Of a stretch of DNA of 64,000 bases, positions 749 to 55,527 are shown in pieces. Position 1 is the first letter of the stretch; every line of letters starts with the position of its first letter. The notes under the pieces were generated by a model, which was not told the DNA's origin, searched no databases, and saw only the letters and a program-made list of their open reading frames with translations. Both the position numbers and the translations under genes were made by a program. The stretch lies in NCBI GenBank assembly GCA_027451745.1, contig DAIDIP010000010.1, positions 1 to 64,000 of the forward strand. The letters run 5' to 3'. The stretch is from Candidatus Melainabacteria bacterium (GTDB taxonomy: Bacteria; Cyanobacteriota; Vampirovibrionia; Obscuribacterales; Obscuribacteraceae).

Positions 749-951
749 TTTGTTCTGCTCCCTTTCTAGTTGATTTATGAGCAGAACCCTCATTTTACAC
801 GCTCTCAAGAGGTGGCCCGAAATTCGGGGTCCACTTCTGTATTCGAATCATCCCCGCTGTCCCTCGGGAACTTCTGGAGCAATCTCTTGAGATTTCCCTT
901 TCTATTTCTTTTTTCTATTTTGGCATGGTAGAACCCCCATGCCCGACCCTG

Positions 952-995
952 ATCTCACAAAAATCTCACAAAAATCTCATTTCTAGCTCACAAAT
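952..995 (+). promoter_or_regulatory. Operator: four 11-bp direct repeats (TCTCACA box), site 1
   Basis: Four consecutive 11-mers begin ATCTCACA, ATCTCACA, ATCTCATT and AGCTCACA, exactly in phase with one helical turn. They lie about 55 bases upstream of the TrbL-like gene, with AT-rich -10-like TTAAGCTTAAAT after them. The 11-bp pitch is the geometry of PhoB/OmpR-family boxes. This is the longest of seven such sites in the window. Confidence 0.7.
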
Positions 996-1051: not shown

Positions 1052-4000
1052 ATGGTTAAGCATTCAATTATTAGCTCGAAAGATCCCCGAACAACAAAAA
1101 GGCTCAAAGCTGCTTTGTTGGTTTTATTTTTGATTTTTTCCCATTTGGCGACGTTATCTGCTTCTGTTTCAGCTCAACCTTGGCGATCTCCTAATGGTGG
1201 AAGATCTAGAGCTCCTCGTCCGCCATCTGGACCAATAAATCCAGGGACCGGTGGTGTTGGCTCTATTCCAGCTCCTGGAGATGGGGGAATAACAGATCAG
1301 GTTCTTCGTGAAACAAATCAGCTTAAGGCTCTATCTAGTTTAATCCAACAGGAGGCAGAACAAGATCGACAAGATCTTACCAGTATAAATCAAGGACTTA
1401 ATACACCAACTGCTGTTAGTGATCTACTAAATGCAGATAATGATCATAGTGTTGCTCCGGGCTCGTTAGGTGAACAAGTATTTGATGGCTTGAAAGCTGT
1501 AACCTATTACACAGTCGGGGGTGGTTGGGTACCTAAACTTGGTTGGTTAGTAGCTAAATACATGCAGCAAGCGGTATCGGAATGGATTGGTCCAACTATC
1601 GGTCACTTTTTGATTTCTCGGATGATTGCGTTTAAAGACAGCCCAGATGTTAGTTATGACAAAAATGGTTTTTCGACCCAAATGCGTAGGTTAAATCATT
1701 TAGTACGTAATTTCTCCTACGATCTACTTCTTCTGTTCTTTATTATGGCTATTTGGCGTGCATGGAATGGCGCTATTTGGGGTAATGGTCGCATGTGGGG
1801 GGCAATAGGCAGGATTATTGCGGCAAGCGCCTGCATAATTGCATGGCCTGAAATTTATCACTACACAATAATGGTAGCTAATTATGCAAGTAATTTATTC
1901 TTGCAAGATATGGTTAACAGACCTCAAGAAATTGGCGATGCTGTTGTGAAATTCTTCTTCGATGCGGTGGCTTTTAAAGGTATAAATTCAACCAATTCAA
2001 TGATTCCATTTGATTGGGTATTTGAACTAGTAGTTAACATGGCGATTGGTTTAGCTACTATAGTCTCATTAGGTGCATATTTTGTCGAAAAAGCTATTCA
2101 ATTAACCATAATAGTAATGGCCTATGTATTTGGTCCTCTTTTTCTAGTGTGCCTCGCCTCACCTGATACTGAATCCTATACATCTAGTTTCTTGCGGTTA
2201 TTTGTAGAAGCTACGATGTGGAATTTTATTTGGGGAGGACTCACAGAACTTTTAGTGTATGTAGTAAACCAGGGACAAACTACTGGCTCGCCGTTTGCAC
2301 AAATATCACAGGCAGCCGGCTCAGTAACAGGTGATCCGCAAAATCCTTGGTTTATTTTGCTCCTGGTATTGGGCATATTACAAGCCATGTTACAAGTCCC
2401 GGGTTATCTATCTAAAGGACAGCTAAGAGCCCAAGGCGGTATTCTGGAAATGGCATTTGCTGCTGCCCAATTGCAACGCATTATAGGAATGTTTTATGGA
2501 ACTGGTGGTCTCTATACAGCGCTAAGGCATGGTCTTTCAAATCAAAATCTCAGCTCGTATCATCGTCCTATCAATACTAGCAGTGGTGCGGGGACAACTG
2601 CAGGACAAACACTAAATGGCTTGTCTGGAGCAGGACCTTCACCATTTCCATTGACGAGTGGTGCTGGCACTACTTCAGGCGCAACCGCAGCACAACAATT
2701 GCAATTGCAAGCAGCACGCAGACAACAAATGCAACAAGGCGTGCCTTTAACTGGACAACCGCTGCAAGCTCAAGGTGCAGCGACTGTCGGACAACGTATA
2801 CAACAAGCTTTGGGTGCTGTTGGTGCTGCTGTTAGCGGAGCAACCGTAGCACCAGCGGGTGGTTCGGTAGCTTATGCCGGCGTAGGATTAGGAAATGTAG
2901 CAAGCCCACGGGGTGGAAATATTGCACCTATGGTTGTAACCCCGCATGATGAGGATGCTGATGTTCCAAGACCAGGTCCATTAAACGTGGGCAGATTGAC
3001 AGGTGTACAGACATTACAGAACCAAGCAGCAATTTTTGTGCAAGAAGACGTTAAGAAACGCGGTATTGCTACTGTAGGTGAGAATAGTTTTGACAATAGA
3101 AACAGAATTAGCTTAAAAACCGCAGGTACCATCGAACGAGTCCGACTACGAGCCGGTGCTACTCCAACAGAACGTGCGGAAGCTTTAACTGCAGCATCCT
3201 TAATGAGATGGATGGGAGACGGAAGAGGTGGAGTTGAAGTTGGAGCAGCTGGCAACCTGTGGTGGGACATGGTCACCAGCGCCAAAATGGGGATTCCCAA
3301 CTATGTTCCAGGACCACTAGGACAAGCTTTAGGCGCGGCTGTGGCGGCAGTCAATCCATTTGGTCGAACAGATGCATACGGGCATGTTAAACAAAGACCT
3401 CTTGATCGTTTTGCTATGTGGTTAAGCAGAGGCAAAATGACACCAGGCTTCAAGAGTGCCATGGAGCTCAGAGAAGGCGTTACAAAAAGTCATTTTATGT
3501 TCGACGGTATAAATGCATATTTTGCTGGTGATAGAAATAACGCCATTGCTGGTTATATGACCGATACATTTGGTCCATGGAATGGTCCTGCACATACGCC
3601 ACAAGAAGGAATGAGACCAGCAAGAACTAATAGAGAAATGGCAATATATCGCTTGACTAATGGACAAGCGCTTGCTGGTGGTACAAATAACAACTTAATT
3701 GATGCTATGGGTCAATTAAGAAGCTGCGGCATTGATGATAGTCTTGTTACTAACCGAATTGTGGCATCTCATCCAACCATACTGCGTTTGGGCAAAACAC
3801 CAAAGAGTTTAGCAATTCCCGCAGTAACCAATCTGGTACGTGAGGTTGCAGCTAATCATTTTGGTGAAGATGCTACAAGAATGACTGGTGCGGAGTTACA
3901 CTACTTCTATGAAACAAGTGTCATGCCTCATCTTCAAGACGATCACGTATTAGCTGCAATGGCAATTGGTAAACATTACGGTAATTATTTTGCTACTGCT

Positions 4001-4138
4001 TCTAATGTTGATTCTTTAGTGCAGGCTAAGCGATCAACATATGGCGCAAGGAAAGATGAGAAGTCTTTTGAAAATTCGCTGAGTGCATTGCGCTTAAATT
4101 CTGATTTCAATAGCTTTACAGGAAGATTACCTTGGTAG
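1052..4138 (+). CDS. TrbL/VirB6-like polytopic membrane protein with large soluble C-terminus
   Basis: A 1028-residue protein. A hydrophobic secretion signal lies at about 18-42, followed by a Pro/Gly-rich linker. Five or more membrane segments lie at about 220-237, 250-283, 320-370, 383-405 and 430-450. The spacing and the VFGPLFLVCL/FVEATMWNFIWGG segments recall the TrbL/VirB6 channel subunits of type IV secretion systems. After residue 460 comes a Gln/Ala/Gly-rich linker (about 500-640) and then a roughly 350-residue soluble region I do not recognise. It is the first gene of a unit with the next CDS (66-base gap) and has the strongest 11-bp-repeat operator upstream. No VirB4/VirD4 ATPase is visible in the window, so a secretion role is an inference. 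Confidence 0.6.
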   Translation: MVKHSIISSKDPRTTKRLKAALLVLFLIFSHLATLSASVSAQPWRSPNGGRSRAPRPPSGPINPGTGGVGSIPAPGDGGITDQVLRETNQLKALSSLIQQEAEQDRQDLTSINQGLNTPTAVSDLLNADNDHSVAPGSLGEQVFDGLKAVTYYTVGGGWVPKLGWLVAKYMQQAVSEWIGPTIGHFLISRMIAFKDSPDVSYDKNGFSTQMRRLNHLVRNFSYDLLLLFFIMAIWRAWNGAIWGNGRMWGAIGRIIAASACIIAWPEIYHYTIMVANYASNLFLQDMVNRPQEIGDAVVKFFFDAVAFKGINSTNSMIPFDWVFELVVNMAIGLATIVSLGAYFVEKAIQLTIIVMAYVFGPLFLVCLASPDTESYTSSFLRLFVEATMWNFIWGGLTELLVYVVNQGQTTGSPFAQISQAAGSVTGDPQNPWFILLLVLGILQAMLQVPGYLSKGQLRAQGGILEMAFAAAQLQRIIGMFYGTGGLYTALRHGLSNQNLSSYHRPINTSSGAGTTAGQTLNGLSGAGPSPFPLTSGAGTTSGATAAQQLQLQAARRQQMQQGVPLTGQPLQAQGAATVGQRIQQALGAVGAAVSGATVAPAGGSVAYAGVGLGNVASPRGGNIAPMVVTPHDEDADVPRPGPLNVGRLTGVQTLQNQAAIFVQEDVKKRGIATVGENSFDNRNRISLKTAGTIERVRLRAGATPTERAEALTAASLMRWMGDGRGGVEVGAAGNLWWDMVTSAKMGIPNYVPGPLGQALGAAVAAVNPFGRTDAYGHVKQRPLDRFAMWLSRGKMTPGFKSAMELREGVTKSHFMFDGINAYFAGDRNNAIAGYMTDTFGPWNGPAHTPQEGMRPARTNREMAIYRLTNGQALAGGTNNNLIDAMGQLRSCGIDDSLVTNRIVASHPTILRLGKTPKSLAIPAVTNLVREVAANHFGEDATRMTGAELHYFYETSVMPHLQDDHVLAAMAIGKHYGNYFATASNVDSLVQAKRSTYGARKDEKSFENSLSALRLNSDFNSFTGRLPW

Positions 4139-4204
4139 CAATTAATTATAGCAGTGAAGATACTCACGCAACAACAAAAATTTTTTCGCAGTAGAGGAAA
4201 GATT

Positions 4205-5701
4205 ATGGGATTCGAAGATAACAATCAAAGAATTGGAGAACAACTAGGTAAAGAGACACAACAAAAACCTGAAGGTCCTTCTGCCTGGCATGATGAGCTT
4301 TTGGCTTATGCGCAATTACCCAAAGACGACCCCAAGGTAAAAACACCCGCTAAACCAGCTGATGGCTGGGGAACTGTTCATTTAGGGCTATTTCCAAATA
4401 CAGAAGTAAATAAACTACCTGATCCTTCCAAGAGGGTCAAATACAGTGAGATGGTTGACGGTAAAGAAGTGGAAGGTTATAAATTCATTGATAGTGGAAA
4501 AATCCCAGGACAGGAAATTGACTATACAACAACCTGGTATTGGTCTTTAGATGAAAAATTAGCCAAAATAGAAACGCATTATCGACAGCCCGGGGATCCA
4601 CACTCAACTACGGGATTTAAGCCCACAGATGACAAGTTTTTTCCAACTTATGCTAACCAAAATATAAGTACTGTCAGCATAGAACCTACGGTAAATGAAG
4701 GACAACAAGGGTATTACAGGAATGTCTTTACATTTCCAGTAAAAGATCCCAAATCGAACCATTATCTTGCAATAGAATCGAGATGCTTTGTCCGTGCAGA
4801 CGGAAAAACAGTTTCTTCAGAAGAAATTTTGGACGAAGGTGATCCTAGTATCCGAGAGGATGACATTAAATACCGAGCCTTTCATCACAAAACTGTTTTG
4901 CGCTATAAAAATATACAGCTAGATGAGACGTTCAAGCAAATGTCTGGGACCGAATTAAAAGGTTATGCGCAATACGATGGTGAAACTGGTGATATATTGC
5001 GAGACTGTGAGATCACGAATGATGGTAAATTCATCAGTCAAACAATTTACGATCGTGGCAGCACAGAGCCAAAAAAAATTGAATGTAGTTATGACGCTGA
5101 AGGAAATCCAAGTATAAGAACAGAATATGATCTAGACTCCAATAAAATTAGACGTTTAGTCGAATACGGTCAAGATGACAACAAGTTGGTAATCAACAAA
5201 GAAACAAAATATGGCTATCTTGGTGATGATCGCAACCTAGTTACACAATATGACAGAACCGGTCAGATAGGGCTAAGCAGAGCAGTGGTAATTCCCGAAA
5301 ATAACGGCGAGCCTGATAAAATAGAAACATTGCTTACTTTCCTTCCAGACACCAAGCAAATCACTATCGAAACGTTTAACGTAGCAGACAGAAAACTATC
5401 GGCAATAGTTACACTGGGCCCAGACACTAACGGCGCTTATAGAACTGAAAGCGTTAAAATACCAGTAGAAGGTGCGTTGATAGGACAATTTCATGAGATT
5501 ACCTATAAAGATGGCAAATTACCGTTTATAACAGCAGCTGATAGTTCGGGTAAACAAGCAATAATTGGATTGCAAGGAATGTTTAAAACTAAGAACGGTA
5601 AAACTGTTTCTTCATCAGCCGTGCAGAAAATATTCGGGGATAATCGCACCAGGGCCCAGCTGCAACAGACGCTTTCAGAGCTACAGAAACTGCAAAAATA
5701 G
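4205..5701 (+). CDS. Hypothetical protein with YD-like beta segments
   Basis: A 498-residue protein started at the ATG at 4205, because GAGGAAAG sits just upstream; the earlier ATG at 4154 has no such site. The N-terminus is hydrophilic without signal peptide or membrane segment. The middle (about 240-420) is a run of short beta-rich units such as YAQYDGETGDI, CSYDAEGNPS and TQYDRTGQIGL, reminiscent of YD/RHS-like or MORN-like antiparallel sheets, though no exact family motif is met. It lies 66 bases after the TrbL-like gene with no operator of its own, so it is probably co-transcribed and may be a substrate or accessory of that membrane protein. Function unknown. Confidence 0.7.
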   Translation: MGFEDNNQRIGEQLGKETQQKPEGPSAWHDELLAYAQLPKDDPKVKTPAKPADGWGTVHLGLFPNTEVNKLPDPSKRVKYSEMVDGKEVEGYKFIDSGKIPGQEIDYTTTWYWSLDEKLAKIETHYRQPGDPHSTTGFKPTDDKFFPTYANQNISTVSIEPTVNEGQQGYYRNVFTFPVKDPKSNHYLAIESRCFVRADGKTVSSEEILDEGDPSIREDDIKYRAFHHKTVLRYKNIQLDETFKQMSGTELKGYAQYDGETGDILRDCEITNDGKFISQTIYDRGSTEPKKIECSYDAEGNPSIRTEYDLDSNKIRRLVEYGQDDNKLVINKETKYGYLGDDRNLVTQYDRTGQIGLSRAVVIPENNGEPDKIETLLTFLPDTKQITIETFNVADRKLSAIVTLGPDTNGAYRTESVKIPVEGALIGQFHEITYKDGKLPFITAADSSGKQAIIGLQGMFKTKNGKTVSSSAVQKIFGDNRTRAQLQQTLSELQKLQK

Positions 5702-5765
5702 GCTACAAACAAACAAGATTATAAAGCGGTACAAATGGGGATTTACACGTATATAGGACAAAGAA

Positions 5766-5787
5766 AGCTCACAATTATCTCACACCC
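5766..5787 (+). promoter_or_regulatory. Operator: 11-bp direct repeat (TCTCACA box), site 2
   Basis: AGCTCACAATT is followed immediately by ATCTCACACCC, and TTTAAAATA, a plausible -10, follows about 20 bases later. The site lies 64 bases upstream of the 386-residue gene. Same layout as site 1. Confidence 0.65.
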
Positions 5788-5850
5788 GTTCGTTACGATT
5801 TAAAATAGCTCGCCGGACGGAGGGATCCGTTAAATAAGTGGTACTTTGCA

Positions 5851-7011
5851 ATGACAAAAGTAGTCAAAATCGCAATTTCTATAAGCATATTTTTTATATG
5901 CAGCTACGCTACAGCTTCTTTTGCTCAAGGCAATACAGACATTACTAACCCCAATGGACTTTATACTCCAGCTGGAACAGCTCCTCCACAAGGAGCTCCT
6001 CCGCCACCAGGGGATGGTACACAATCAGCAAATACAATACCTGGAGACAAGTTAAAAAACACACAACCAGTACCGCGTGGCAATCCTTCTTCTTCACCTA
6101 AAACAGGAACCAATTTCCCCACGCAAACGTTATCGCCAGCTCCTAGGGTAAATGTCACTGTAGATGAAGGTCCACGTGGACCAAACGAACCTGCTCGCGG
6201 TTCAAGGATACCCTGGACTTTTCAGCCAAATGAAATTCCAAGCAGTAAATTAGGACAGGTAGAATCAAAATTAGGATTAGCCGCAGGAACGTTAACCAAT
6301 GCCTCTACACCATATCAAAATATTACTGCTAGCCCTGAGCAAATAGAAGCAGCACAGAATGTGCTAAACCCCCCAGCTGGCAATGATGGCATGAATCCAA
6401 TGGGGTACAGAGGAAAACCAATGCCTGATGATACTATTCGCGGCAAAGAAAGAACCGTGATGTCCTACATCTCAAAGGATCATCCTGGACCTAGTTCTTC
6501 TAGATATAGCTCCAGCAACTATGCGCGATTGAATCCTATAGATCCAGTTCGTTTTTATAGTCGCTATTTAGTCAAAAAAGGCGTTGTTGTAGCTTGTATA
6601 GAGCTTATCATTGCAGCCTGTTTTATGATATTTGGGCATCAATATGCTGGCAGCAAAGCAATAATAGCAGGTGGAGGATTAATGCTTTTATTAATGGCTT
6701 ATACAATATGGAAAATAGATATGTTTAACACACTAAATGCAAGAGGTCCTGGACAGGCCGTTAACTTAGCCGGCTCAGTGCTAGATGGCAGCGCTCCAGA
6801 TTCGTTCGATCCGTATAAACCTAATCCTGTTACTCCCGATGAGCAAGTCTTGCAGAGTCATACTTATGAAGGCGACTATACGTTGAGCGAAGATACAAAG
6901 AATGCCCAAAGCGGTGGTGGAAATAAGGGACAGGCTAATTTACCTATTGCAAACTCATTTGCTACAAATCGTTCCGGATTAACACTGAGTCCTCTAGGGG
7001 CACAACATTGA
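5851..7011 (+). CDS. Exported proline-rich protein with a two-helix membrane anchor
   Basis: A 386-residue protein. Residues 1-25 form a classical signal peptide (charged start, hydrophobic core, AxA-like end SFA before QG). Residues 30-210 are Pro/Gly/Ser/Asn-rich and probably disordered. Two adjacent membrane helices lie at about 241-263 and 268-288, separated by a short polar turn, and a 95-residue hydrophilic tail follows. The signal plus helical hairpin recalls VirB2/TrbC pilin-type subunits, but the long linker and tail are not typical, so no family is assigned. First gene of a unit with the 1157-residue protein (47-base gap). Confidence 0.65.
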   Translation: MTKVVKIAISISIFFICSYATASFAQGNTDITNPNGLYTPAGTAPPQGAPPPPGDGTQSANTIPGDKLKNTQPVPRGNPSSSPKTGTNFPTQTLSPAPRVNVTVDEGPRGPNEPARGSRIPWTFQPNEIPSSKLGQVESKLGLAAGTLTNASTPYQNITASPEQIEAAQNVLNPPAGNDGMNPMGYRGKPMPDDTIRGKERTVMSYISKDHPGPSSSRYSSSNYARLNPIDPVRFYSRYLVKKGVVVACIELIIAACFMIFGHQYAGSKAIIAGGGLMLLLMAYTIWKIDMFNTLNARGPGQAVNLAGSVLDGSAPDSFDPYKPNPVTPDEQVLQSHTYEGDYTLSEDTKNAQSGGGNKGQANLPIANSFATNRSGLTLSPLGAQH

Positions 7012-7058
7012 TGGATGCGCGTTTGCGATAGAAACTATTTCGAGGTGAAAACAAAATT

Positions 7059-10000
7059 ATGGGCGGCGATATTCCTAGCCAAAAAACCGGACAATCTAAA
7101 AATGCAGAAGATAGTTTGCTGAGGCGAATTAATGGTGATACTACAGGCAGTGATTCTGGCGAGGAAAAGGAAAAACCCAGTGCTTTGGATGCTTTTCGTA
7201 GCGAGCTTATCAAAACAACAGCCCCCGTACTTTCGGTGGCATTTCTTCGAGCTCCTTTAGGAGACGCCGATGTCACTAAAGCTCAAGAAGGAGCATCTGA
7301 AAGTAACAAGAAAATCATGGGTGACTTGGCAGTTATTAAAAACAAAGGTGCGTCCGTCGATAGTTTGAGCAATTTGCGCGAAAGGCTCAATACTGATTTA
7401 CAAACAAGAGTGGATGCTTTGCGCACTCTAGCGAGTAATGACAAACTTCCAAACATGGAATCTAGTCTTCTAAAATCCTTTGAATTTAACGCAACTACAA
7501 AATTTAGGGGTAATACATTAGCGCAAAACGTGGCTATTTTAGATGCAGTAGCAGATAGGTTAAAGAAAAGCGGCAACCCAGAACTTGTACAATTGGGCAA
7601 AGATTTTGCTCCCCCAGCGGTTTGTTCTCTTGCAATAAAAGGAGCGCATATTCCCGCCGACAATCGGAAGCTAAGAGAAGATGTTCAAAAAGCTCTTGTG
7701 ATACCAATTAATGCACCCGCTGAAACTCTGCAATCAAGATTTACTGAACAGGCACTTTCTTATTTGAGTGGACGAGATGTTCTAGCCCCTGTCCAAGCAG
7801 TATTTGGTCAAGCCTTTAATTTAAATCTGCGAATGCTCAAGAATGACGGCAGCGCAGCAGAGCAAAATAGAATTGCCGGGCTTTTGGGATTGTCCCCAGA
7901 CGAAGCAAAAGTGGTAAACGAACGCTATATTCAATCTCAAAAAGCAATGACTGACGCATTAGCAGTGTCGCGTAGCACAACTGCGGCCCGAGTATCTGTA
8001 GATAGTAAAACAGCTAGTGGTGCTGATAAAGGTGCAGCCGGTAGGGTTGTGTTAAGTGGAGGGGATACAACTGTATCCAATCCAATCCTTGAAGAACCGA
8101 AAGTCAAGGACTTTCTTTCATTGGGAACTAGAAGTGATGCTCAAAAAATTGTAAGTTCCAAAATGATTGATTATTTACCGAAGCGTTTTTTAGACGGTCA
8201 TGGATCGCTGAAAGACTTCAACAATGACGAGTTAAAAAGCTTTGCCGACGGGCTCGGATTAAAATATGATCCTGACAAAACGAAGGACAGAGCAAAGTTG
8301 ACAGCCACTTCAACAGAAGAAGAAAAAGCTAACGTCAATGTTTACGAAGCAATGAACAAGCTGTATCAAAAGTATGCTGATGCTAAAGAACATATAGGCA
8401 CTTCTGGTGGCGGAAGAGGAATAGTTGGACAAGGCATAGACGTAATTGCAGAAGAGGCTGAAGAAGCAACCGGCATACCAAAATGGGTTTATGCAACCGG
8501 AGCGGGCGTTACAGCGGCTGTAGTAGCAGCAGGGTTCTTTGCACGAGCAATCGGATTAGATAAAATAGCTGGCTTTGTCGCACCCAAGATTGCTCAAGCC
8601 ATGAAAGATCGCAACGAGGCAAAGAAGGCTGAATATAAAGGACAAGATGCTGAAAATGTAGTCAAACGTTTGAAAAATAAAATAGGCGATTCTGTCACTA
8701 CTTACGATGCGCTAGAAAAACGCCTTAATTTGCCGACATGGCAAAATGATTTGGCAAAAACAGACGGTGAGAAAGCTTATCTTGCACATCTGAAAGATGA
8801 GGTTTCTCTGCGCGCTTCAGAAGCCAGAGAACAGGGCAACCAAGGATCTCAATCTGTTAAAACATTTTTACAGTCAGAACTAGATAGAGCTGGAACAATG
8901 AAATTGTCTGAAGGTTCAGGACGAAGATTCTCTCTTCGTCGAGGAGCCACTACCGATGGGTCAGTCTCGAGCAAATCAAAAGAATCTGAAATCACTCCAG
9001 AACAAAAAGCTGAAGCTGATAAAGCAGAAATGAGACGCAGTGTTATGCTCAATCTTTTGCGGAGTGGACAAGATAAAGGCCTTCCCATTACCTTTGAAGA
9101 AGGAAAGGACTCTGTCGAAGAGCATCTGAAAGATTATGAAAGTATCTACCTTACAGGAGCGAATGAGGCGCAAAAGGAATCCTATGCTGACTTAAAAAAT
9201 GAGGTGAGTACTTTAGCACATGGTACTATTATTGGTGATCATATAGTTGCGCAATTAGAGCCGCATGCAGACGCCTTCTCGAGGTTTCAAACTGAAGCCC
9301 TTAGACTCCTTGGTACTGCAGGTGCAGGGGTTGATCTAAACTCTACTGATCCAGCCGTACACAAAGTAGCAGGAGCGCAGTTGTTGCTTCTAGCTAGCAA
9401 TCCAGCAAGATTGCAAGTAAGCGACGAGGCCAGAGCACAAATCATTGATAAGGTCGTAAATCCGCTGTTAAATGCAACAGCTCCAACGCAGACAGTAGAG
9501 GCTTCTGTGAAAGAATTGGCAGCAACTCCAATTACAGCCATGTTATCTCGTCAACGCACACTAACAAATGCTCAAGAAAAAGCAATGTGGGAAAAATATT
9601 ATCGGCAAGCCTTTACCGGTATGCACGAAACACATGGAACTGCGTTCAATCGCGATGGCGCAACATTTGTAGATCTTGAAAGAGATATAGATTCAGAAAT
9701 AAATGCGAATAGCGGTGCAAATAGTAGAATTGACGCTTTGAAAACCATAAAAGCGGACATTGCAGAAGCAAGACGTCCTATTAAAGAACGCCGCGATAAG
9801 ATTGCAAAAATCGAAGTAAAAATGGATGCTTGTTGGGTAGATCCAGCTGATCATAGCCAAGGCTTTCTACCAGGACAGCAGCGTGTACATAAACGACTAG
9901 AAAGAGAAAAGCAGACCCTCCAACAAGAATTGATAATGCTTGAGAAGCCAAGGCCAAAACCTGCAAAAGGCCAAAGCCCACCATCACAACCACAAGATGA

Positions 10001-10532
10001 TGGAAAAACAGTTGCTGAAGTTTTGGCAGGTAAATTACCTGCACCACGAGAAATGGCTGTATTGCGTAATCTTGCTAATCAAGCTGGAAGCGCCGAGATC
10101 ACCTTAAAGCTCAGTGCTGGTTTGGATCCAAAAGTTAGTGCAGTGGAAATAAAATCTGCCGGAAACACTGAAAGTATGGGGCTAAGCAAATTCAGAGATC
10201 GCATTGTCGACTCTTACAAATTAGCTGGAAATGAAGAGGCGGCACGCGAAGTTCGTGGGCTTACAGACAGACAATTTGAGCAAGTCCTCACAGACTCATC
10301 TAGGGGACTTGATCTAGTCTCTATAGAGCAACGTGGAACAGAAACCGATGCACGAAGTGGAGTTCTGGGTAAATCAGGCACCACAGGAAGAGTTTTTGTG
10401 ATGAAATGGATAATCGGCAGCAGTTTATCTGTTTTGGGTGTTGGAGCTACACAATTAATGCGCCAACGACTTGAGCAAAATAATATTCAACCCGATTTAG
10501 GAGCTGGGCTGCATGCTGGACCAGGGGCCTAA
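7059..10532 (+). CDS. Large hypothetical protein, mostly helical, two membrane segments
   Basis: A 1157-residue protein preceded by GAGGTG about 11 bases before the ATG. It has no signal peptide. Hydrophobic segments lie at about 475-504 (VYATGAGVTAAVVAAGFFA) and near the C-terminus at about 1110-1132. The remainder is rich in Ala, Glu, Lys and Gln and looks like long helical or coiled-coil regions, with a basic Pro-rich stretch near 960-985 (KPRPKPAKGQSPPSQPQ). I recognise no domain. It follows the exported proline-rich gene closely with no operator of its own, so the two are probably one transcript and may form part of the same envelope assembly. Confidence 0.7.
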   Translation: MGGDIPSQKTGQSKNAEDSLLRRINGDTTGSDSGEEKEKPSALDAFRSELIKTTAPVLSVAFLRAPLGDADVTKAQEGASESNKKIMGDLAVIKNKGASVDSLSNLRERLNTDLQTRVDALRTLASNDKLPNMESSLLKSFEFNATTKFRGNTLAQNVAILDAVADRLKKSGNPELVQLGKDFAPPAVCSLAIKGAHIPADNRKLREDVQKALVIPINAPAETLQSRFTEQALSYLSGRDVLAPVQAVFGQAFNLNLRMLKNDGSAAEQNRIAGLLGLSPDEAKVVNERYIQSQKAMTDALAVSRSTTAARVSVDSKTASGADKGAAGRVVLSGGDTTVSNPILEEPKVKDFLSLGTRSDAQKIVSSKMIDYLPKRFLDGHGSLKDFNNDELKSFADGLGLKYDPDKTKDRAKLTATSTEEEKANVNVYEAMNKLYQKYADAKEHIGTSGGGRGIVGQGIDVIAEEAEEATGIPKWVYATGAGVTAAVVAAGFFARAIGLDKIAGFVAPKIAQAMKDRNEAKKAEYKGQDAENVVKRLKNKIGDSVTTYDALEKRLNLPTWQNDLAKTDGEKAYLAHLKDEVSLRASEAREQGNQGSQSVKTFLQSELDRAGTMKLSEGSGRRFSLRRGATTDGSVSSKSKESEITPEQKAEADKAEMRRSVMLNLLRSGQDKGLPITFEEGKDSVEEHLKDYESIYLTGANEAQKESYADLKNEVSTLAHGTIIGDHIVAQLEPHADAFSRFQTEALRLLGTAGAGVDLNSTDPAVHKVAGAQLLLLASNPARLQVSDEARAQIIDKVVNPLLNATAPTQTVEASVKELAATPITAMLSRQRTLTNAQEKAMWEKYYRQAFTGMHETHGTAFNRDGATFVDLERDIDSEINANSGANSRIDALKTIKADIAEARRPIKERRDKIAKIEVKMDACWVDPADHSQGFLPGQQRVHKRLEREKQTLQQELIMLEKPRPKPAKGQSPPSQPQDDGKTVAEVLAGKLPAPREMAVLRNLANQAGSAEITLKLSAGLDPKVSAVEIKSAGNTESMGLSKFRDRIVDSYKLAGNEEAAREVRGLTDRQFEQVLTDSSRGLDLVSIEQRGTETDARSGVLGKSGTTGRVFVMKWIIGSSLSVLGVGATQLMRQRLEQNNIQPDLGAGLHAGPGA

Positions 10533-10562
10533 GTAGAGCTACTGTAGTCGTTTTACGCCTTA

Positions 10563-10584
10563 ATCTCACAAATATCTCATGCTT
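10563..10584 (+). promoter_or_regulatory. Operator: 11-bp direct repeat (TCTCACA box), site 3
   Basis: ATCTCACAAAT is followed by ATCTCATGCTT, then TTGAACAC and a TAAACT -10-like element. It lies 60 bases upstream of the 2503-residue gene. The core is nearly identical to site 5 at 25102-25123 on the other strand (TCTCACAAATATCTCAT, then CTTGA). Confidence 0.7.
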
Positions 10585-10644
10585 GAACACTAAACTAAAG
10601 TTAGGGTCCAAGTATAAATTTCCAAGGCACAGTTCCCGTTAATT

Positions 10645-13600
10645 ATGGCTGAATATGAATACAATCAGTCTCCTAATCCTGGTGTAGAAGACCCAGACAC
10701 TTTAAAACGTTTGCAAGACGATAGTAATAGTAGACCCAAGGATGGTCCGGAGCAAAATTCGAGCAAGCTCAGTAATGGTGATATCAATAGTGCACCAAAA
10801 TATAGAGACCAAATAGCAGCTCAAAAAATGCTTGAGATTTTGGCACAAAAAACCGACGGTCAAAAGCAAAACCAAACTTTTATTTATAGCATGGTTATCA
10901 GCAAGGCTGATTTTGGTCCGAAGGTTGCTGAGCGAGTAGCCACAGAAATGGCAGAGAATAAAATTGCTAAAGAAAAAATTGCTAAATATGACGATCTAAG
11001 CGAAGGGGAGAAGAAGACAGTAAAAGATGAGTTGTTTAAAGGAATGGATCCAAAATTAAAAGAACAACTTGTTCTCCAAGGGAAAAAAGACATTTTTCAA
11101 AACAAGCAAGCCGAATTATCCCGGGCAATGAAGGAACATGTTTTAGAGACTATAAAACAAGAGTCTGAAAAAGGGGAGTTTGGTGAATATAGCAGAATCG
11201 CCTATACCGCCTATGTAAATGAAATAAACAAGCAAGTAAATAGTGCAGCAAAGCGTATAGTCGATCAAGAATTACGCTTTCCAAAATCAACCTGCCCCAT
11301 AAAGTTGCCTGAGGATCAAAATGGTCCTTACAGCATAGACAGACTGCGTGTTGCTATTACAACTGGCAAAGTTCAATGTAAGCTACCCGATTATGCTAAC
11401 GATAAAAATTCAGCTCCAGGCGCTCAAGAGCGAGATGATTTAGTACTTGCAGAAAATTTTCTGGATGAAACCAAAATTATATTATCTGAAGTTGATGCAC
11501 TAAACCAAGTAAAAGCGATTAAGGATCAACTTACCTGGATCTTCGAAGGTAAGCCTCCTGCTGGTCTGATGCCTTCTGTGGATTTACAAAAAGATGGAAA
11601 TAATATCCCCCTGGCTCGAGACTATGTTCAAAATGCCTTACCTTTGGAAGTATTACTAGAACAGGTTAACGATCACGCTAGAGCCATATCAGCTATGACT
11701 GATCCACAAGTGGCTGGTGCGTTTGATTCCGCATTGCTTTCTCAGCTTTTAAATAATTTTCCAGGGAAGATAACACAAACCGAAAATGGTTTGAAAATCA
11801 TTCCAGATTATCCAAAAACATTAGCAGATACAGATGAGAATCGGACAAAAAAAATAGCGCTAGAAAAATGGGTTGACAAAGTACATCAGCCCTTACAACA
11901 AATATTGAAAGCGTGTGACTTTGCTAACCGTTATCCAGATCGCGTTTGCTATTGGGCACGTGTTCCGGCTCATGGTATCGATACCGCTACAGGAAAGGAG
12001 TACAATCGGATTCAATTTAGATACAATGCTGAGCCTGTCAAAGTACAAGTGGTACTTCTTGATGGAACAACAGGAACCGAAGATCGTATTAAGGTTACTA
12101 CCACTAAACAGCTCCAATCGATAGGTTTGCTACCTGAAATATTTGGTGCTACAGATATAGGCAAACCCATAACGTCTGGTCGAGTGACTATAAATGGTAA
12201 TAATTTAGATTCAGACGGCACTGAAATTGGTCTTAAAGGTAATCATATTCGATTAAGTAAGGACGGCATGGTCCAGGTAAAAGCTGGTAATAATAATTCG
12301 GCATCCATTGAGTTAAAAGACGCAAGCGGAAAAACATACAAATTAAAGCCTGGCGATAGCAAATGGTACGATATACTGCCTGGTATCTCGCTTAGTGTGG
12401 GGAATGAAAAGGTACAAATACACAATGATACACGGCTCTACAAGCCTACAGATACTATTGCTGTCAAAGATAGTTATGGAACACCACATTTGGCGCGGGC
12501 TGAAGAATTACCAAATCGCATGCGTATGGATGCCGCTTCAGAATTCATGTCTGAAGCCGTCCCTGTAGCAGTTGATATTGGGTTTACTGTTACTGGTTTA
12601 CTTGAACTCAAGGCTTTAGCAGTGGCTGGTCGAAGAGTTGCTCAATTGACGGCAGAGGTGGTGGCAGAAAGAGCTGCTTTAGCAGCAGCTAGAGATCTTG
12701 CTGTTCGTGAAACCTTTGTTATATCTACTGCTGAAATTGGTGCATTATCAAATGCAGCTACTTTTACCGAAGAAGCTGGGCTTGCTATGACTGGTTTGAC
12801 AAGCGCACGTGCTAGCACTTCGGTAGCTGAGCGCTTAGCAGTAGAAGGACTTTCTTCTTCTGCATTTGCAGCTACAAGAACATCTGCAACAAAACATTTA
12901 CTCTTGGGAGTGCCGGGACTATTGCGTCATTCTTTAGAAGACAAACTAAATGAATTAAGTCCTTATAGATTAGGTTCCTGGTTATATACAGGACGAGGTT
13001 TATTCATGGCAGCAGACATCTGGGCATCCACCGGATGGGCTAGTGGCGTGGGCAAAGCTTGGGAAGGCATGTGGGCAGCTAGCCCAGAGCTAATCAAAGT
13101 AGCCTCTGCTGCTAGCCCTTTTTTAAAGACGGCAAGTGCTATAAATGGTGGCATTTTGAAATTAGCTGATCTCTATTATGTGCCCCAGACAATTATGGAA
13201 ACAAAGCGCGAGATTAATTTATTTGCCAGAACAATTCAAGATAGCGATGGTAAGGAAGTCAAAGCTCTCATCGACGCACAAAAACGTTTAGGCAGTCTAG
13301 AGACTAAACCACTTGAACATAGACTAGCTGAACATCTAGTGGGTCTTTTACACAAAGATGATAGAGAGCAAATTCAAACTGCATTGAATAACTTATCGAA
13401 AGAAACGCTCAGCTCTAGTGAACTTGACGTCAAATCCAATCAGTTAGCAAATGTTTTTCTATACAATGGTGCCACCAATCAGGAAAAACTCATTGCCGCT
13501 CTTGGACTACTCAAGCTTCGCTTTCGAGAAGACGGTTCTTTGCCAGAAGTGTTGGCGAGTGAAATAACAGATGGACAGTCCACTGCAATTCTTACTTTGC

Positions 13601-16600
13601 CAGAAGTTAGAAGTTTTTTGGCAAACTTCACACCAACGAAATTTTCTGACGCATCGAAAAAATCAATGGAAACCAATTTTCATGAAGCTATTGATAGTAT
13701 AGCAGGAACACTAAAACCAACAGAAAAAGATTTGCTCATCGGCCAAACAATAGATGCGTTGAACCGCGAGAACAATGATCCTGTTAGGCAGCAACAAATT
13801 AATCACTTGGCTAACAAGTTTAAAGATCTGTCTAGTCCAAGCAATGTGCGGATTATCTCAGGTATCGGATTATTGATGCTAAATACCGATAAGTCGGAAG
13901 GAGGAGTGAAAGAATTACTCGGTGAACGCCAAGGTTTTTATGTGAGTGTCAGAGATAACGATAGAGATAGGTTGGTAGAGCAGAATTATTGGGACATTAG
14001 TGAAGAAACTGCTAGAAAACTTAGTATGTCTCGCGATGAATTTAACGAAGCTGGAAGTACAGCCAAGATAGAAACGATTAAAGAAATAAAAGAACTCGTT
14101 AGTGCGCCAGAGGTTATTTACTTCTTAAGACAAGAACTTGGTCGAACGAGAGAGACTCCAACAGGAAAAGATTCATCTGAAGAACAGGCTTACCCTGCAT
14201 ATGCCCACTCTTCTGATGATAGACTGACTGTGGCTGATGTTCTGCTAAATTACGGACAACTCGAACCTGAAGAGCATGGCAGAATTTGTCTTGAAATAGC
14301 AAAAGACCCAAGTTTGAATCCTGCTAATCAAGCGCAGTCATTACTCGCAAGTGATAAACATCGAGTTGCCCAGGTCCTATTGACACATATACAAAGAGGA
14401 CAATCGGTTGCAAAAGATCTTAGAGAACAACACTTAGCCGACAAAGCAAGAGCGGCTGTAACTGAAAGTCTTACTGATGCAAGAAAAGACGCTGAAATAA
14501 TAATTAAAAACCAAGCGATAGATCGGAATCTGCGGGCTTTGGCTGTTGCTACTTTAAACGCGACGTGCTCTGGAGTGATACCCGAAAAACCTTTGCGGCC
14601 AGTGGATATAGTTCAAAGAGCGACAAAATTGAGCAAGCTTGAAAAAACTTGGCAGAGTTGTATCAGTGAAAACAATGGAAAAGCGACTAACAAGTTCGCT
14701 GATAGTTACTTCAAAGGTTTAGTAGATCAGCTGCACGACAAAAAAACACAGTCTGAAGGTGGGTTTCAAGCAGCTAAGATTGTTCTACAAATGAATGATG
14801 TTGGAATTATAGCTTTGGCCCCAGCACAGAAGCAGGAGGCACTCAATGAGGTGATGCTTACTCTTTATGCAACTGAGCCGCAAGGAAAAAATCCATTCGT
14901 AAAGAATACCAGGTTGAATATAAGTCCAGAAAAGCGAGAGAATGCTAGAGAATCTATGGGCATTCTGTCCAGTCATTTTAAAGACATTAGCGATCAACAA
15001 AAATCTCAACTAAGATCGCACATTACGGCAATTCTTAATCTTCCAAATCAAGAGAATCGGGAAGACTCAGAAGCAGATCCGATTGGAGAATCAGATTTAA
15101 AAATGTCCGCTTTGTCTAACATCAAAGCCATATTTGCTCAAGCTAGCTTAGATGAATGCAAATCTTTGGCGGATAGTCTCAAAAAAGATATTCACTCCTT
15201 GTCTGTACCTAGTATCACCGAGAATAACAGATTCAGATCCATTCATTCTCAATTACTTGAAACAGAAATAAAAGAACTCAGTCAGCTAACTTTGTCACGG
15301 CAAGAAAATTTGGCCTTGCGCAATGACATTACCGGATTTTTAAAAGAAATTGTTTTGGCTGAACCATTACCAGCTCAAAGCAATATAAGGCTAGGAGCTC
15401 TTCAAGCTTTAAATGTACTGAGTCCCGTTAACGGGCTTTCTGAAATCTGTTCGAGTTTACTTGGAGACGAAAGCAATATAGCTGTAAGAGAAGAAGCAGA
15501 GAATATCCAAAAACTTATTGGTCATGAAGATCCATATGTATATCATACTGAATATTTACGCTCCAAAAGAGGAATACAAAATGCATTCGAATCGGTTAGA
15601 TTAACCGATTCTGAGCATTTCCTCACCAGTGATCCTTTAGGGAGAATTCCTTCGCATTTACTGGCTACAGATTCTGGAAAAGTCCGCTTAGGAAATAACT
15701 GGTCGGATACACAAAAGCTCGAAATATTAGAACAATGCATAAACGGTCTAGGTGACCGCGCTCTTGCTGGAAGATCAACTAAAGATATTATAGAGAATGT
15801 AAATGCTTTAGCATTCTTGATGTCATCAGGGGGACATCCTGTAGCAGCTCCGTTCAATTTAAAGGCTATGGAATTAGCTGCCCGAAATTGGCAGCGTTTA
15901 AGAGAAAGTGACAATCTTGAAATCAAAAAAGTAACGGCACCCTTAAGCATGTTGCTCGTACTGCATGCTCCTGCATTGCCCTATCCAGAGCGCCATCAAG
16001 CCCTGCAGGAGTTTTTGAATAATGATATATTCTCTCCAAAAGAAAAAGCTACAGTACTAAGCATGGTCCTTGAACAAGAGTTCCATAGAACTCCTCACAA
16101 TATTGCCAATTCGAGATTTAAAGAAAGTCAAGACTATCAATTAGCAGTTTTGCATGCACTGGAGCCACTACAAACAACAGAACAAATTCCGCTGCTCGCG
16201 GCGATTATAGATGAAAAACCAAAATCATCTGTTGAAAAAGATTCTTCAGGACAGGTGTATAAAGTGAATTACCCCGATGGAGGATATAGATCAGTACAAA
16301 TACAGGATGGAAAAATAACTGCATTATCTATTAAACGCGGCGCTGGTTCAGAGGAAAAATGGATTTTAGATGTTGCCTCAGGAAATTATTTTAGGGAAAA
16401 TGATTTAAAAGAAAAGAAACAACCCTGGGCTTGTACACTGCAATTGTATGAGAATGGTGACCTTGTGGTGATAGACAAACCAAATCCAATCGCTGGTAAA
16501 GGACTCGAGAATTACGAACATTCTCAATTATCAACACTATATTCAATCGGAAGAGGAATGCAAAAATCTCCTGCTGGAACTGCGATCACTCATTTTGGCA

Positions 16601-18156
16601 GTAAAACAACTTACACTCGAGATGGGTCCACGATCTTAGAAGTACCATTAGGCAAGCAACCTTTAGAGGAGCAAGTACTCAGATATAATCCGTCTTTAGC
16701 TCATACAGATTCAGATTTTTGGGTACAAGTCACATACGCAGACGGAAGCACACGATCACAAGAATGTGATGGAAAAGGACGAGGCTTCCAAAGCCCTCAA
16801 TTCAAGCCTGTTGTAGCTGTTAACAAAGATGATTATGACGAATTAACAAGATCTGATCCATTCCAATTTCCTAGAGAATGGCAAAGAGAGCGTCCGCTGT
16901 GGTTCGACAACCTGAGTATTGTTCGTTATCTTGACTCGACAGGATTTGATAGAACAACTCACTCGTTTTGGCGAACAGATTTATCCAATGATGGAAGAAC
17001 TTACCAAACAAAAATCAAAACTGACGGCAGTAAAATCATGGAGAGCACTGCAAAAGCAGACGATCTTTCTCGGCTCCCTGGAAGCCATATAATACTAGCA
17101 ACAGCAGGCAATGATAGCAATGCTGCACATCCCATGCCATTAGTTCACGAACAAGCTTTGTCAATGTTAGCCAAACTCTCTCTAGGGCTGGGTCCTGAAC
17201 AGTCGGTAAATCTAAAGGCTAACAACTTTAATCTAAATAGGCAAACACTTATAGAACGATATAGTTCCGCCAAATTAGCAATAGAGTCGAGCAAGAATAA
17301 CAGTCTTATTGAATTCAAAGATCAATTTATTAGTCAACGAAATGAGTATACTCTTATTGACGCACAAAAGCGCGATTTATATGCGAAAACAGAAGCAGAC
17401 AAAGAGTTGGGCTACTGGTGGCTTGTTGGTTACTCTGCTGATTATGATAAAGCATCTAGGAATGCGCAGGTTCGCGCCGAACAACAACTCCGTCGATTAC
17501 AATCTGATGCAAATTTTGGTTCGAATCGAACCAATGTAACTGGACAACAAGCAAGAACAGCTCTTGCATATCTTGCCATCAGCGATCGTGGTCCTATAGG
17601 CCAAAAGGCAATAAAAGCCATAGGAGAAATATGCGAAGGTAATAGCTTTGGTTCAGGTCCAATGCGGGAGATTGTAGCACGAGACTTAATAAGTGAGCCC
17701 ACTATAGGTACAGCTAGTAGAAGAGTGCTGTTCGAGTCTTTAAAAACTCATGTAGCACGCTACAATACTGCAGCTTCACAAGCAAAGGCAGCTGAATTAA
17801 TTTGCAAAGCCTTAGAAATAGAGTATCAAACGATGCCCAGCGAACTTAGTAATCCTTTGTATAAACAAAGCGAGTCGCTACAAGTAGACTGTATTAAGTT
17901 TCTGAAGGAACAAACTCGATATAACGAAAGCAGTATTGCTTCGGTGAGAGCTCTGTCCGAGTTATCTCCTAGCAAAGCTATTCGTGACGCTGCAGGAGAA
18001 TATATGGCTATATCAAAGAAAATATCCAAAGAATCTAAAACGAAACAGAATGGCTTATCTGGTGGCACAATTATATCTTCGACTAATTCCAAGAAAGCAA
18101 GCGCTCAAAGCCTAAACAAACATGCAGCCTCTTTGCCCAAAATAACAATCGACTAA
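10645..18156 (+). CDS. Giant hypothetical protein (2503 aa), lineage-specific
   Basis: One uninterrupted frame of 2503 residues. The hydrophilic N-terminus (1-480) is highly charged. Residues about 500-600 form a beta-rich domain that looks loosely FHA-like but lacks the Ser/His signature. Ala-rich amphipathic or membrane-associated helices lie at about 635-690 and 780-850. A long alpha-helical region (about 870-1750) has HEAT-like spacing. Residues about 1855-1930 and 2010-2040 contain YPDGGYRSVQ- and YADGSTRSQE-type beta repeats, and the C-terminus is again helical and HEAT-like. There is no signal peptide. It has its own operator and ends overlapping the next, convergent gene by 4 bases. 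Size and repeats suit a structural or surface-associated protein; function unknown. Confidence 0.75.
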   Translation: MAEYEYNQSPNPGVEDPDTLKRLQDDSNSRPKDGPEQNSSKLSNGDINSAPKYRDQIAAQKMLEILAQKTDGQKQNQTFIYSMVISKADFGPKVAERVATEMAENKIAKEKIAKYDDLSEGEKKTVKDELFKGMDPKLKEQLVLQGKKDIFQNKQAELSRAMKEHVLETIKQESEKGEFGEYSRIAYTAYVNEINKQVNSAAKRIVDQELRFPKSTCPIKLPEDQNGPYSIDRLRVAITTGKVQCKLPDYANDKNSAPGAQERDDLVLAENFLDETKIILSEVDALNQVKAIKDQLTWIFEGKPPAGLMPSVDLQKDGNNIPLARDYVQNALPLEVLLEQVNDHARAISAMTDPQVAGAFDSALLSQLLNNFPGKITQTENGLKIIPDYPKTLADTDENRTKKIALEKWVDKVHQPLQQILKACDFANRYPDRVCYWARVPAHGIDTATGKEYNRIQFRYNAEPVKVQVVLLDGTTGTEDRIKVTTTKQLQSIGLLPEIFGATDIGKPITSGRVTINGNNLDSDGTEIGLKGNHIRLSKDGMVQVKAGNNNSASIELKDASGKTYKLKPGDSKWYDILPGISLSVGNEKVQIHNDTRLYKPTDTIAVKDSYGTPHLARAEELPNRMRMDAASEFMSEAVPVAVDIGFTVTGLLELKALAVAGRRVAQLTAEVVAERAALAAARDLAVRETFVISTAEIGALSNAATFTEEAGLAMTGLTSARASTSVAERLAVEGLSSSAFAATRTSATKHLLLGVPGLLRHSLEDKLNELSPYRLGSWLYTGRGLFMAADIWASTGWASGVGKAWEGMWAASPELIKVASAASPFLKTASAINGGILKLADLYYVPQTIMETKREINLFARTIQDSDGKEVKALIDAQKRLGSLETKPLEHRLAEHLVGLLHKDDREQIQTALNNLSKETLSSSELDVKSNQLANVFLYNGATNQEKLIAALGLLKLRFREDGSLPEVLASEITDGQSTAILTLPEVRSFLANFTPTKFSDASKKSMETNFHEAIDSIAGTLKPTEKDLLIGQTIDALNRENNDPVRQQQINHLANKFKDLSSPSNVRIISGIGLLMLNTDKSEGGVKELLGERQGFYVSVRDNDRDRLVEQNYWDISEETARKLSMSRDEFNEAGSTAKIETIKEIKELVSAPEVIYFLRQELGRTRETPTGKDSSEEQAYPAYAHSSDDRLTVADVLLNYGQLEPEEHGRICLEIAKDPSLNPANQAQSLLASDKHRVAQVLLTHIQRGQSVAKDLREQHLADKARAAVTESLTDARKDAEIIIKNQAIDRNLRALAVATLNATCSGVIPEKPLRPVDIVQRATKLSKLEKTWQSCISENNGKATNKFADSYFKGLVDQLHDKKTQSEGGFQAAKIVLQMNDVGIIALAPAQKQEALNEVMLTLYATEPQGKNPFVKNTRLNISPEKRENARESMGILSSHFKDISDQQKSQLRSHITAILNLPNQENREDSEADPIGESDLKMSALSNIKAIFAQASLDECKSLADSLKKDIHSLSVPSITENNRFRSIHSQLLETEIKELSQLTLSRQENLALRNDITGFLKEIVLAEPLPAQSNIRLGALQALNVLSPVNGLSEICSSLLGDESNIAVREEAENIQKLIGHEDPYVYHTEYLRSKRGIQNAFESVRLTDSEHFLTSDPLGRIPSHLLATDSGKVRLGNNWSDTQKLEILEQCINGLGDRALAGRSTKDIIENVNALAFLMSSGGHPVAAPFNLKAMELAARNWQRLRESDNLEIKKVTAPLSMLLVLHAPALPYPERHQALQEFLNNDIFSPKEKATVLSMVLEQEFHRTPHNIANSRFKESQDYQLAVLHALEPLQTTEQIPLLAAIIDEKPKSSVEKDSSGQVYKVNYPDGGYRSVQIQDGKITALSIKRGAGSEEKWILDVASGNYFRENDLKEKKQPWACTLQLYENGDLVVIDKPNPIAGKGLENYEHSQLSTLYSIGRGMQKSPAGTAITHFGSKTTYTRDGSTILEVPLGKQPLEEQVLRYNPSLAHTDSDFWVQVTYADGSTRSQECDGKGRGFQSPQFKPVVAVNKDDYDELTRSDPFQFPREWQRERPLWFDNLSIVRYLDSTGFDRTTHSFWRTDLSNDGRTYQTKIKTDGSKIMESTAKADDLSRLPGSHIILATAGNDSNAAHPMPLVHEQALSMLAKLSLGLGPEQSVNLKANNFNLNRQTLIERYSSAKLAIESSKNNSLIEFKDQFISQRNEYTLIDAQKRDLYAKTEADKELGYWWLVGYSADYDKASRNAQVRAEQQLRRLQSDANFGSNRTNVTGQQARTALAYLAISDRGPIGQKAIKAIGEICEGNSFGSGPMREIVARDLISEPTIGTASRRVLFESLKTHVARYNTAASQAKAAELICKALEIEYQTMPSELSNPLYKQSESLQVDCIKFLKEQTRYNESSIASVRALSELSPSKAIRDAAGEYMAISKKISKESKTKQNGLSGGTIISSTNSKKASAQSLNKHAASLPKITID

Positions 18157-18578
18157 CGATCGGTATTATCTTTTGACTCGTCAGCTTGTTTTTTATCGTG
18201 TCGCTTTTTGTTTTCTTGTAGCAATTGTCCTAATTCTTCTGCCACAGCTCGCATTTTCAAGAACTCTTGCTCCACTAAATATTTTGCTGGTACTGAATGT
18301 GGATCGACATAAGTTCCTTCCATCATGCCAGGAAGGTGCCACTCGCAGGCTTCGCCAAATTCTTCTTCTTCAATTCTATCGGCAAAATATTCTTCGAGAG
18401 CTGCAGCATCTTTAGCATCGTCATCAACATTATTGTCATTGGCAATATTTTGTGCCTGTTCTTGTGTATTTTGCTCGGCAAAAACATTATTGTTAGCCGA
18501 ATTGGCGCCACTTGCTTGCCCAGGCTTAGGCTTGGGTCGGGGCGGCGGAGCCATTGGTGGTGGTAGTGATTCATCCAT
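18153..18578 (-). CDS. Small acidic protein with proline-rich N-terminus
   Basis: A 141-residue protein. Residues 3-20 are almost all Pro with Ala, Arg and Lys (PPPMAPPPRPKPKPG), residues 25-75 are Asn/Asp/Glu-rich and probably disordered, and the C-terminal half is a charged helical segment. It has no signal peptide and no recognised domain. It is convergent with the 2503-residue gene, and the two stop codons overlap. The 11-bp-repeat operator at 18655-18678 faces this gene, so it is probably expressed with the giant proteins and could be a small partner or regulator of them. That is an inference from shared control and position only. Confidence 0.65.
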   Translation of the reverse strand: MDESLPPPMAPPPRPKPKPGQASGANSANNNVFAEQNTQEQAQNIANDNNVDDDAKDAAALEEYFADRIEEEEFGEACEWHLPGMMEGTYVDPHSVPAKYLVEQEFLKMRAVAEELGQLLQENKKRHDKKQADESKDNTDR

Positions 18579-18654: not shown

Positions 18655-18678
18655 TTCCTGTGATATTTCTGTGAGGTG
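18655..18678 (-). promoter_or_regulatory. Operator: 11-bp direct repeat (TCACA box), site 4
   Basis: On the minus strand CTCACAGAAAT is followed by ATCACAGGAAA; the TCACA cores are exactly 11 bases apart. It lies about 80 bases upstream of the start at 18578. It is weaker than sites 1-3 but has the same phase and orientation. Confidence 0.55.
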
Positions 18679-22773: not shown

Positions 22774-23009
22774 TGAAGAGTCTTTTCACACTCTTCAACA
22801 GGTGTTTTCATGCCTTCAACAATAGATTCTCTCATTCCAGGCACAGATAAGAGATAAAGCGTTTCTTCTACCGCGCGCCATTCATCCTCGCCGATAATCA
22901 CAGCATTGCCACGCTTGCCCGTAATCATGATTGGTTCGTGCGTTTGTGCTGCCTCGTCTACTAATTTGTATAAATTATCCCTGGCTTCGCTAACACGCAT
23001 ACTACGCAT
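22767..23009 (-). CDS. yefM: YefM/Phd-family antitoxin
   Basis: An 80-residue antitoxin and autorepressor. The N-terminal Phd/YefM DNA-binding fold is clear: MRVSEARDNLYKLVDEA, HEPIMITGKRGNAVIIGEDEWRAVEETLYLLSVPGMRESI. The acidic C-terminal tail (VEECEKTLQW) would occlude YoeB. I chose the second ATG because GGAG then sits 8 bases upstream; starting two codons earlier is also possible. It is co-transcribed with yoeB, with a paired CGTACG operator just upstream. Confidence 0.88.
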   Translation of the reverse strand: MRSMRVSEARDNLYKLVDEAAQTHEPIMITGKRGNAVIIGEDEWRAVEETLYLLSVPGMRESIVEGMKTPVEECEKTLQW

Positions 23010-25101: not shown

Positions 25102-25123
25102 AAGAATGAGATATTTGTGAGAA
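25102..25123 (-). promoter_or_regulatory. Operator: 11-bp direct repeat (TCTCACA box), site 5
   Basis: On the minus strand TCTCACAAAT is followed by ATCTCATTCTT, then GACATTTAG and TCTATAGAA. The core matches site 3 almost base for base. It lies about 140 bases upstream of the chosen DUF4388-like start. Confidence 0.68.
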
Positions 25124-55504: not shown

Positions 55505-55527
55505 AGCTGTGAGATCCATGTGAGCAA
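55505..55527 (-). promoter_or_regulatory. Operator: 11-bp direct repeat (TCTCACA box), site 7
   Basis: On the minus strand CTCACATGGAT is followed by CTCACAGCTAA; cores exactly 11 bases apart. It lies about 60 bases upstream of the methyltransferase start and 22 bases from the purN stop. Confidence 0.65.

What the first reader, a model, noticed from the sequence alone, without database searches (positions are those of the whole stretch)
1052..18156. Candidate envelope or secretion system: TrbL-like channel plus giant proteins under one operator
A VirB6/TrbL-like polytopic protein with a large extra C-terminus, an exported proline-rich protein with a helical-hairpin anchor, a 1157-aa protein with two membrane segments and a 2503-aa repeat protein form three adjacent units sharing the 11-bp-repeat operator; the 1320-aa protein with a toxin-like central hydrophobic region joins by the same operator. 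No ATPase, coupling protein or pilus genes of a classical type IV system lie here. This could be the pore and substrates of a lineage-specific system.
Basis: inference. Interest (0 to 1): 0.65.

Follow-up and report, generated by a model that had tools for sequence, protein, structure and literature searches.

The report
Satellite secretion-channel module with giant proteins
In a non-photosynthetic relative of cyanobacteria, a spare copy of a secretion-channel protein travels with a membrane-anchored exported protein and giant proteins under one shared on-switch; the matching engine is encoded elsewhere in the genome, so this looks like an add-on cartridge for a type IV secretion machine rather than a machine of its own.

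Summary
All ORFs are where stated, and the 11-bp-repeat operator is real and sharper than described: CTCACA-N5-CTCACA with a TANNNT -10 hexamer exactly 9 nt downstream at 13 of 13 sites, an OmpR/PhoB-type activator box replacing the -35. The TrbL call is supported by structure, not by sequence: no Pfam TrbL match, but the best solved-structure matches of the AlphaFold model are R388 TrwI/VirB6. No ATPase lies in this locus. The genome does carry an order-wide conserved type IV operon on contig C14: VirB4, VirD4-type coupling protein, a VirB8/DotI fold, and a VirB6-like paralogue of the window protein. These ATPases are not under the operator. Orphan VirB6-like genes recur in other Obscuribacterales; in one genus the order giant - weakly hydrophobic protein - hairpin protein - VirB6-like matches the window's order reversed. 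Best reading: a dispersed satellite module of a lineage-specific type IV secretion system, comparable in kind to the multiple long-tailed VirB6 paralogues of Rickettsiales. That it docks on the C14 ATPases, and that the giants are substrates or scaffolds, is inference.

The parts
954..992 (+). four-repeat operator (CTCACA-type, 11-bp period) before the VirB6-like gene
   Evidence: last double site 976-992, TAAGCT at 1002-1007
1052..4138 (+). VirB6/TrbL-like polytopic protein, 1028 aa: N-terminal hydrophobic segment, membrane core about residues 140-476, ~500-aa C-terminal extension
   Evidence: Foldseek top hits TrwI/VirB6; C14 paralogue 35%
4154..5701 (+). 515-aa soluble protein without an evident signal peptide, second gene of the first unit; an ATG 17 codons in may be the true start
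   Evidence: no relatives found in the fetched loci, no family
5768..5784 (+). operator, with -10 TACGAT at 5794-5799
5851..7011 (+). 386-aa exported Pro-rich protein with C-terminal helical hairpin; N-terminal motif shared with exported proteins of the C14 T4SS operon
7059..10532 (+). 1157-aa protein with two weak membrane segments; sits where a 761-803-aa protein sits in genome G038
   Evidence: no sequence homology detected
10565..10581 (+). operator, with -10 TAAACT
10645..18156 (+). 2503-aa giant; relatives of up to several thousand aa carry HEAT, FHA and TPR domains
18659..18675 (-). operator for the 141-aa gene 18153-18578 (-)
25105..25121 (-). operator before the 24007-25032 (-) ORF, 341 aa
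39126..39142 (-). operator, 105 bp before the 1320-aa gene
35059..39021 (-). 1320-aa protein with hydrophobic centre, same regulon
   Evidence: no family, no relatives in the fetched loci
55508..55524 (-). operator for a possible methyltransferase gene 54656-55447 (-)
   Evidence: Pfam match just below its cut-off

Best explanation
The locus is a dispersed satellite module of a type IV secretion system specific to Obscuribacterales. Shown: a VirB6-like membrane protein with a long C-terminal extension, an exported Pro-rich hairpin protein, a protein with two weak membrane segments and a giant HEAT-type protein form a unit whose gene order recurs (reversed) in another genus of the order, and whose promoters share an OmpR/PhoB-type activator box replacing the -35. 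Shown: a core with VirB4, VirD4-type ATPase, VirB8-fold protein and a VirB6-like paralogue is encoded elsewhere in the same genome. Inferred: when the activator is phosphorylated the module is made as a set; its VirB6-like protein joins or replaces the core's own, using the core's ATPases, while the hairpin protein, the 1157-aa protein and the giant build a dedicated envelope extension or are carried through it, together with other non-exported large proteins of the regulon such as the 1320-aa one.
For: VirB6 fold: six best Foldseek PDB hits are TrwI/VirB6 or the R388 stalk/IMC complex, prob 0.92-1.00. C14 paralogue beside ATPases with P-loop_TraG (1e-17) and T4SS-DNA_transf (1.9e-17) domains. 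VirB8/DotI fold of the C14 204-aa family (E 4e-6). Operon conserved across the order; VirB4 in 52 of 53 genomes. Orphan VirB6-like modules with hairpin protein and giant in G038 and with hairpin protein in G035. Motif shared by the 386-aa protein and the T4SS operon's exported proteins. Regulon.
Against: The ATPase operons lack the operator. The window VirB6-like protein is very divergent (end branch 4.9) and might be specialised or decaying. No Pfam TrbL match and no profile match to the genome's own conjugative TrbL; Foldseek E-values are only 0.01-0.1. The 386-aa family's usual order-wide copy sits beside an RpoB homologue, not in the T4SS operon. The 1157- and 515-aa proteins have no detected relatives. 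The C33 orphan in G038 has no hairpin gene beside it, and the G036 orphan has none near.
Confidence: 0.6

Rival explanations
1. A regulated cell-envelope or attachment assembly that borrowed a VirB6-like membrane scaffold and no longer exchanges anything with a T4SS.
For: ATPase operons lack the operator; the 386-aa family's usual copy is outside the T4SS operon; giants carry scaffold-like HEAT/TPR/FHA domains.
Against: Orphan VirB6-like genes keep the family's invariant residues and recur as modules; the exported motif is shared with T4SS operon proteins.
Confidence: 0.22
2. A set of secreted effectors or polymorphic-type toxins with an accessory channel protein, acting on neighbouring cells or prey.
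For: Large non-exported regulon proteins, hydrophobic centre of the 1320-aa protein, CAP and thioredoxin-like domains in other regulon members; Vampirovibrio, in the same class, is proposed to attack algae with a T4SS (PMC4451040).
Against: No toxin or effector domain found in the window proteins, no PADLOC match, no immunity-gene pattern noticed.
Confidence: 0.12
3. A decaying duplicate left after rearrangement; an IS3-like element lies at 57-808, at the contig end.
For: Long branch of the VirB6-like core; transposase fragments adjacent.
Against: Intact ORFs of 1028 to 2503 aa and intact promoter boxes; the module recurs elsewhere.
Confidence: 0.06

Closest known systems
Rickettsiales rvh T4SS (PMC2653234; Anaplasma VirB6 paralogues, abstract of PMC7648143)
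   Same: several divergent VirB6 paralogues with long variable extensions, T4SS genes dispersed over the genome, a second VirB4
   Different: kinship not tested; here the extra VirB6-like gene sits with a hairpin protein and a giant, under its own operator
R388 TrwI/VirB6
   Same: fold of the membrane core
   Different: 10-13% identity; 1028 aa with a large extra C-terminus; not in a tra/trw operon
Vampirovibrio chlorellavorus T4SS (PMC4451040)
   Same: T4SS in the same class of non-photosynthetic cyanobacteria
   Different: that one is T-type, partly plasmid-borne and conjugation-like; closer in kind to the two conjugative sets on contig C1 here (L005, L006) than to C14
PhoB Pho box (PMC3978041)
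   Same: two direct repeats of 11 bp; here the box replaces the -35
   Different: other repeat sequence (CTCACA); activator not identified

Membership tests
VirB6/TrbL family | VirB6 fold of the polytopic core | tested here: met
   top hits TrwI/VirB6, prob 1.00, but E 0.012-0.1 and TM-score about 0.45 to target; model pLDDT 77
VirB6/TrbL family | sequence match to Pfam PF04610 | tested here: not met
   only the conjugative TrbLs on C1 match, so the protein is called VirB6-like, not a Pfam TrbL member
Type IV secretion system (this locus) | VirB4 ATPase and coupling protein in the locus | tested here: not met
   ORFs of the locus
Type IV secretion system (same genome, C14) | VirB4, VirD4-type ATPase, VirB8, VirB6-like | tested here: met
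Type IV secretion system (same genome, C14) | pilin (VirB2) and outer-membrane core (VirB7/9/10) | not tested
   the 143-aa conserved protein has no family; no structural test made
Rickettsiales rvh T4SS | common descent of the extended VirB6 paralogues | not tested
   no Rickettsiales sequence was compared; resemblance in organisation only
OmpR/PhoB-type promoter box | 11-bp direct repeats at fixed distance from the -10, in place of the -35 | tested here: met
OmpR/PhoB-type promoter box | identified activator | not testable with these tools
   candidate OmpR-type regulator and kinase beside a regulon gene on C29 (L009 9445-12086)

The most novel reading that the evidence does not exclude
Obscuribacterales run a type IV archipelago in which interchangeable cassettes (VirB6-like channel with long tail + exported hairpin protein + membrane protein + giant HEAT/FHA/TPR protein), each with its own switch, plug into one shared ATPase core to display or deliver proteins of 2500 residues or more.
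Probability: 0.25. Interest if true: 0.8.

Novelty: new variant of a known kind. Interest (0 to 1): 0.6.

Why it matters
It points to a conserved T4SS across an order of non-photosynthetic cyanobacteria; the literature searches made here showed no description of it in this order. It also offers a second lineage, besides Rickettsiales, in which VirB6-like proteins have multiplied and grown long tails, so the open question of what VirB6 extensions do could be compared across phyla. The operator gives a ready list of co-regulated candidate partners or substrates.

Tried and rejected
Pfam, NCBIfam and PADLOC scans of the window proteins: nothing. Profile comparison with the genome's conjugative TrbL and an hmmsearch of the PDB with the family profile: nothing. 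Homology of the 1157-aa protein to the 761-803-aa proteins of G038 by hhalign: none detected, so only position and weak hydrophobic segments are claimed. Upstream regions of orphan modules in other genera: no CTCACA double box was seen, and apart from one 11-bp TTGTTACA repeat in G038:C33 nothing clear was found, so the operator is not shown to be conserved with the module. One clade of all orphan VirB6-like proteins: not found; two changes at least. Operator-like matches at C3:132415 and C11:40486 lie inside genes and were dropped.

Full report
Organism and setting. The window is contig C10:1-64000 of a 3.0-Mb, 76-contig genome. Relatives of its VirB6-like family found in named genomes are almost all labelled Candidatus Obscuribacterales, Melainabacteria or Cyanobacteria, so the window comes from this non-photosynthetic cyanobacterial order.

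What is there. None matches Pfam or NCBIfam above a cut-off.

The operator. CTCACA-N5-CTCACA repeats occur 11 times in the window against 1.09 expected, and 30 times in the genome with one mismatch against 5 for the reversed pattern. A weight matrix separates the sites from background in the contigs scanned (best double site at each promoter 20.9 or more, background 14 or less; overlapping secondary sites inside the window's four-repeat array and the C18 array score 15.6 and 16.0). A TANNNT hexamer lies at exactly positions 10-15 after the box in 12 of 12 sites chosen without it, and in a 13th found with it on contig C6, upstream of another large protein without an evident signal peptide. Two direct repeats of 11 bp are the form of the PhoB box (PMC3978041); here the box takes the place of the -35, which is the geometry of OmpR/PhoB-type activation (established knowledge). 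An OmpR-type response regulator and a histidine kinase lie beside the C29 regulon gene and are a candidate, no more. Regulon members outside the window include C18 CAP-domain, thioredoxin-like and 793-aa genes, C18 431- and 424-aa genes, C29 261- and 1168-aa genes and a C35 570-aa gene.

The VirB6-like protein. It has a 35% paralogue on contig C14. An alignment of 38 sequences gave an AlphaFold model of the core, pLDDT 77. Its best PDB matches are TrwI/VirB6 chains of the R388 system, prob 1.00, E 0.012 to 0.08, 10-13% identity. This is support by fold with weak E-values; sequence profiles do not connect the family to Pfam TrbL, to the genome's own conjugative TrbL or to PDB sequences.

Where the engine is. 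The C14 paralogue lies beside a VirB4-type ATPase, a VirD4/TraG-type ATPase and a 204-aa protein. A model of the 204-aa family, predicted on the 211-aa relative from the same genus, matches IcmL-like, DotI, VirB8 and CagV structures, best E 4e-6. The operon, with exported proteins and a very conserved 143-aa protein, is repeated in nearly all loci read from the order, and VirB4 is found in 52 of 53 genomes. A second VirB4 cluster lies on C17 and two conjugative sets on C1. No operator lies before the C14 or C17 ATPase operons.

The module recurs. VirB6-like genes away from the ATPase operon occur in G038 (C290, C246, C33), G035 (C80) and G036 (C11). In G038 the order is giant, 761-803-aa protein, hairpin protein, VirB6-like (complete on C290; partial on C246, C254 and C33); the window has VirB6-like, 515, hairpin, 1157, giant, the same order reversed. 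The giants are homologous (155-425 of the window protein, E 1e-8 to 1e-9) and the hairpin proteins are homologous; the 1157-aa protein is matched by position only. The Pro-rich N-terminal motif of the 386-aa protein is shared with exported proteins of the C14-type operon.

A caution. The 386-aa family has a usual copy in most genomes (44 of 53 match the profile, some through the shared motif only). In the loci read, that copy sits in a conserved cluster with an exported TPR protein and a full-length RpoB homologue, not with T4SS genes. Its role is therefore not proven to be secretion.

Mechanism. Shown: shared promoter architecture, VirB6 fold, recurrence, an ATPase core in the genome. Inferred: the activator turns the set on; the VirB6-like protein enters the inner-membrane complex of the C14 core in place of, or beside, its own; the hairpin protein, the 1157-aa protein and the giant extend or use that channel. 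The Rickettsiales systems, with several VirB6 paralogues that carry long extensions and with scattered T4SS genes (PMC2653234), are the nearest comparison in organisation; kinship was not tested.

Verdict. I rate the satellite-module reading 0.6 likely.

Noticed in passing
L222 (G000:C37) 6261-9938 and the equivalent loci L223-L230, L232-L234: A full-length cyanobacterial-type RpoB homologue with a C-terminal extension sits, in all twelve loci read with this cluster, between an exported TPR protein gene and the usual copy of the 386-aa hairpin family. Whether another rpoB exists was not checked.
   Followed up: partly
G000:C1, L005 and L006: Two closely similar conjugative T4SS sets lie about 86 kb apart on one contig.
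   Followed up: partly
window 57-808 (-): IS3-like transposase fragments at the contig end, directly upstream of the operator array.
   Followed up: partly
window 22507-23015 (-): YoeB/YefM-type toxin-antitoxin pair.
   Followed up: no
window 41951-42575 (-): PIN-domain and MazE/AbrB-type pair, VapBC-like.
   Followed up: no
L008 6158-8217: Two adjacent regulon proteins share a related N-terminal part but carry different C-terminal domains, CAP and thioredoxin-like.
   Followed up: partly
L007 16023-16454 (-): A 143-aa protein of unknown family, 80-93% identical across the order in most copies, is among the most conserved parts of the C14 operon.
   Followed up: no
L010 8853-8869: A perfect-looking operator with -10 on C19 has no clear gene after it.
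   Followed up: partly
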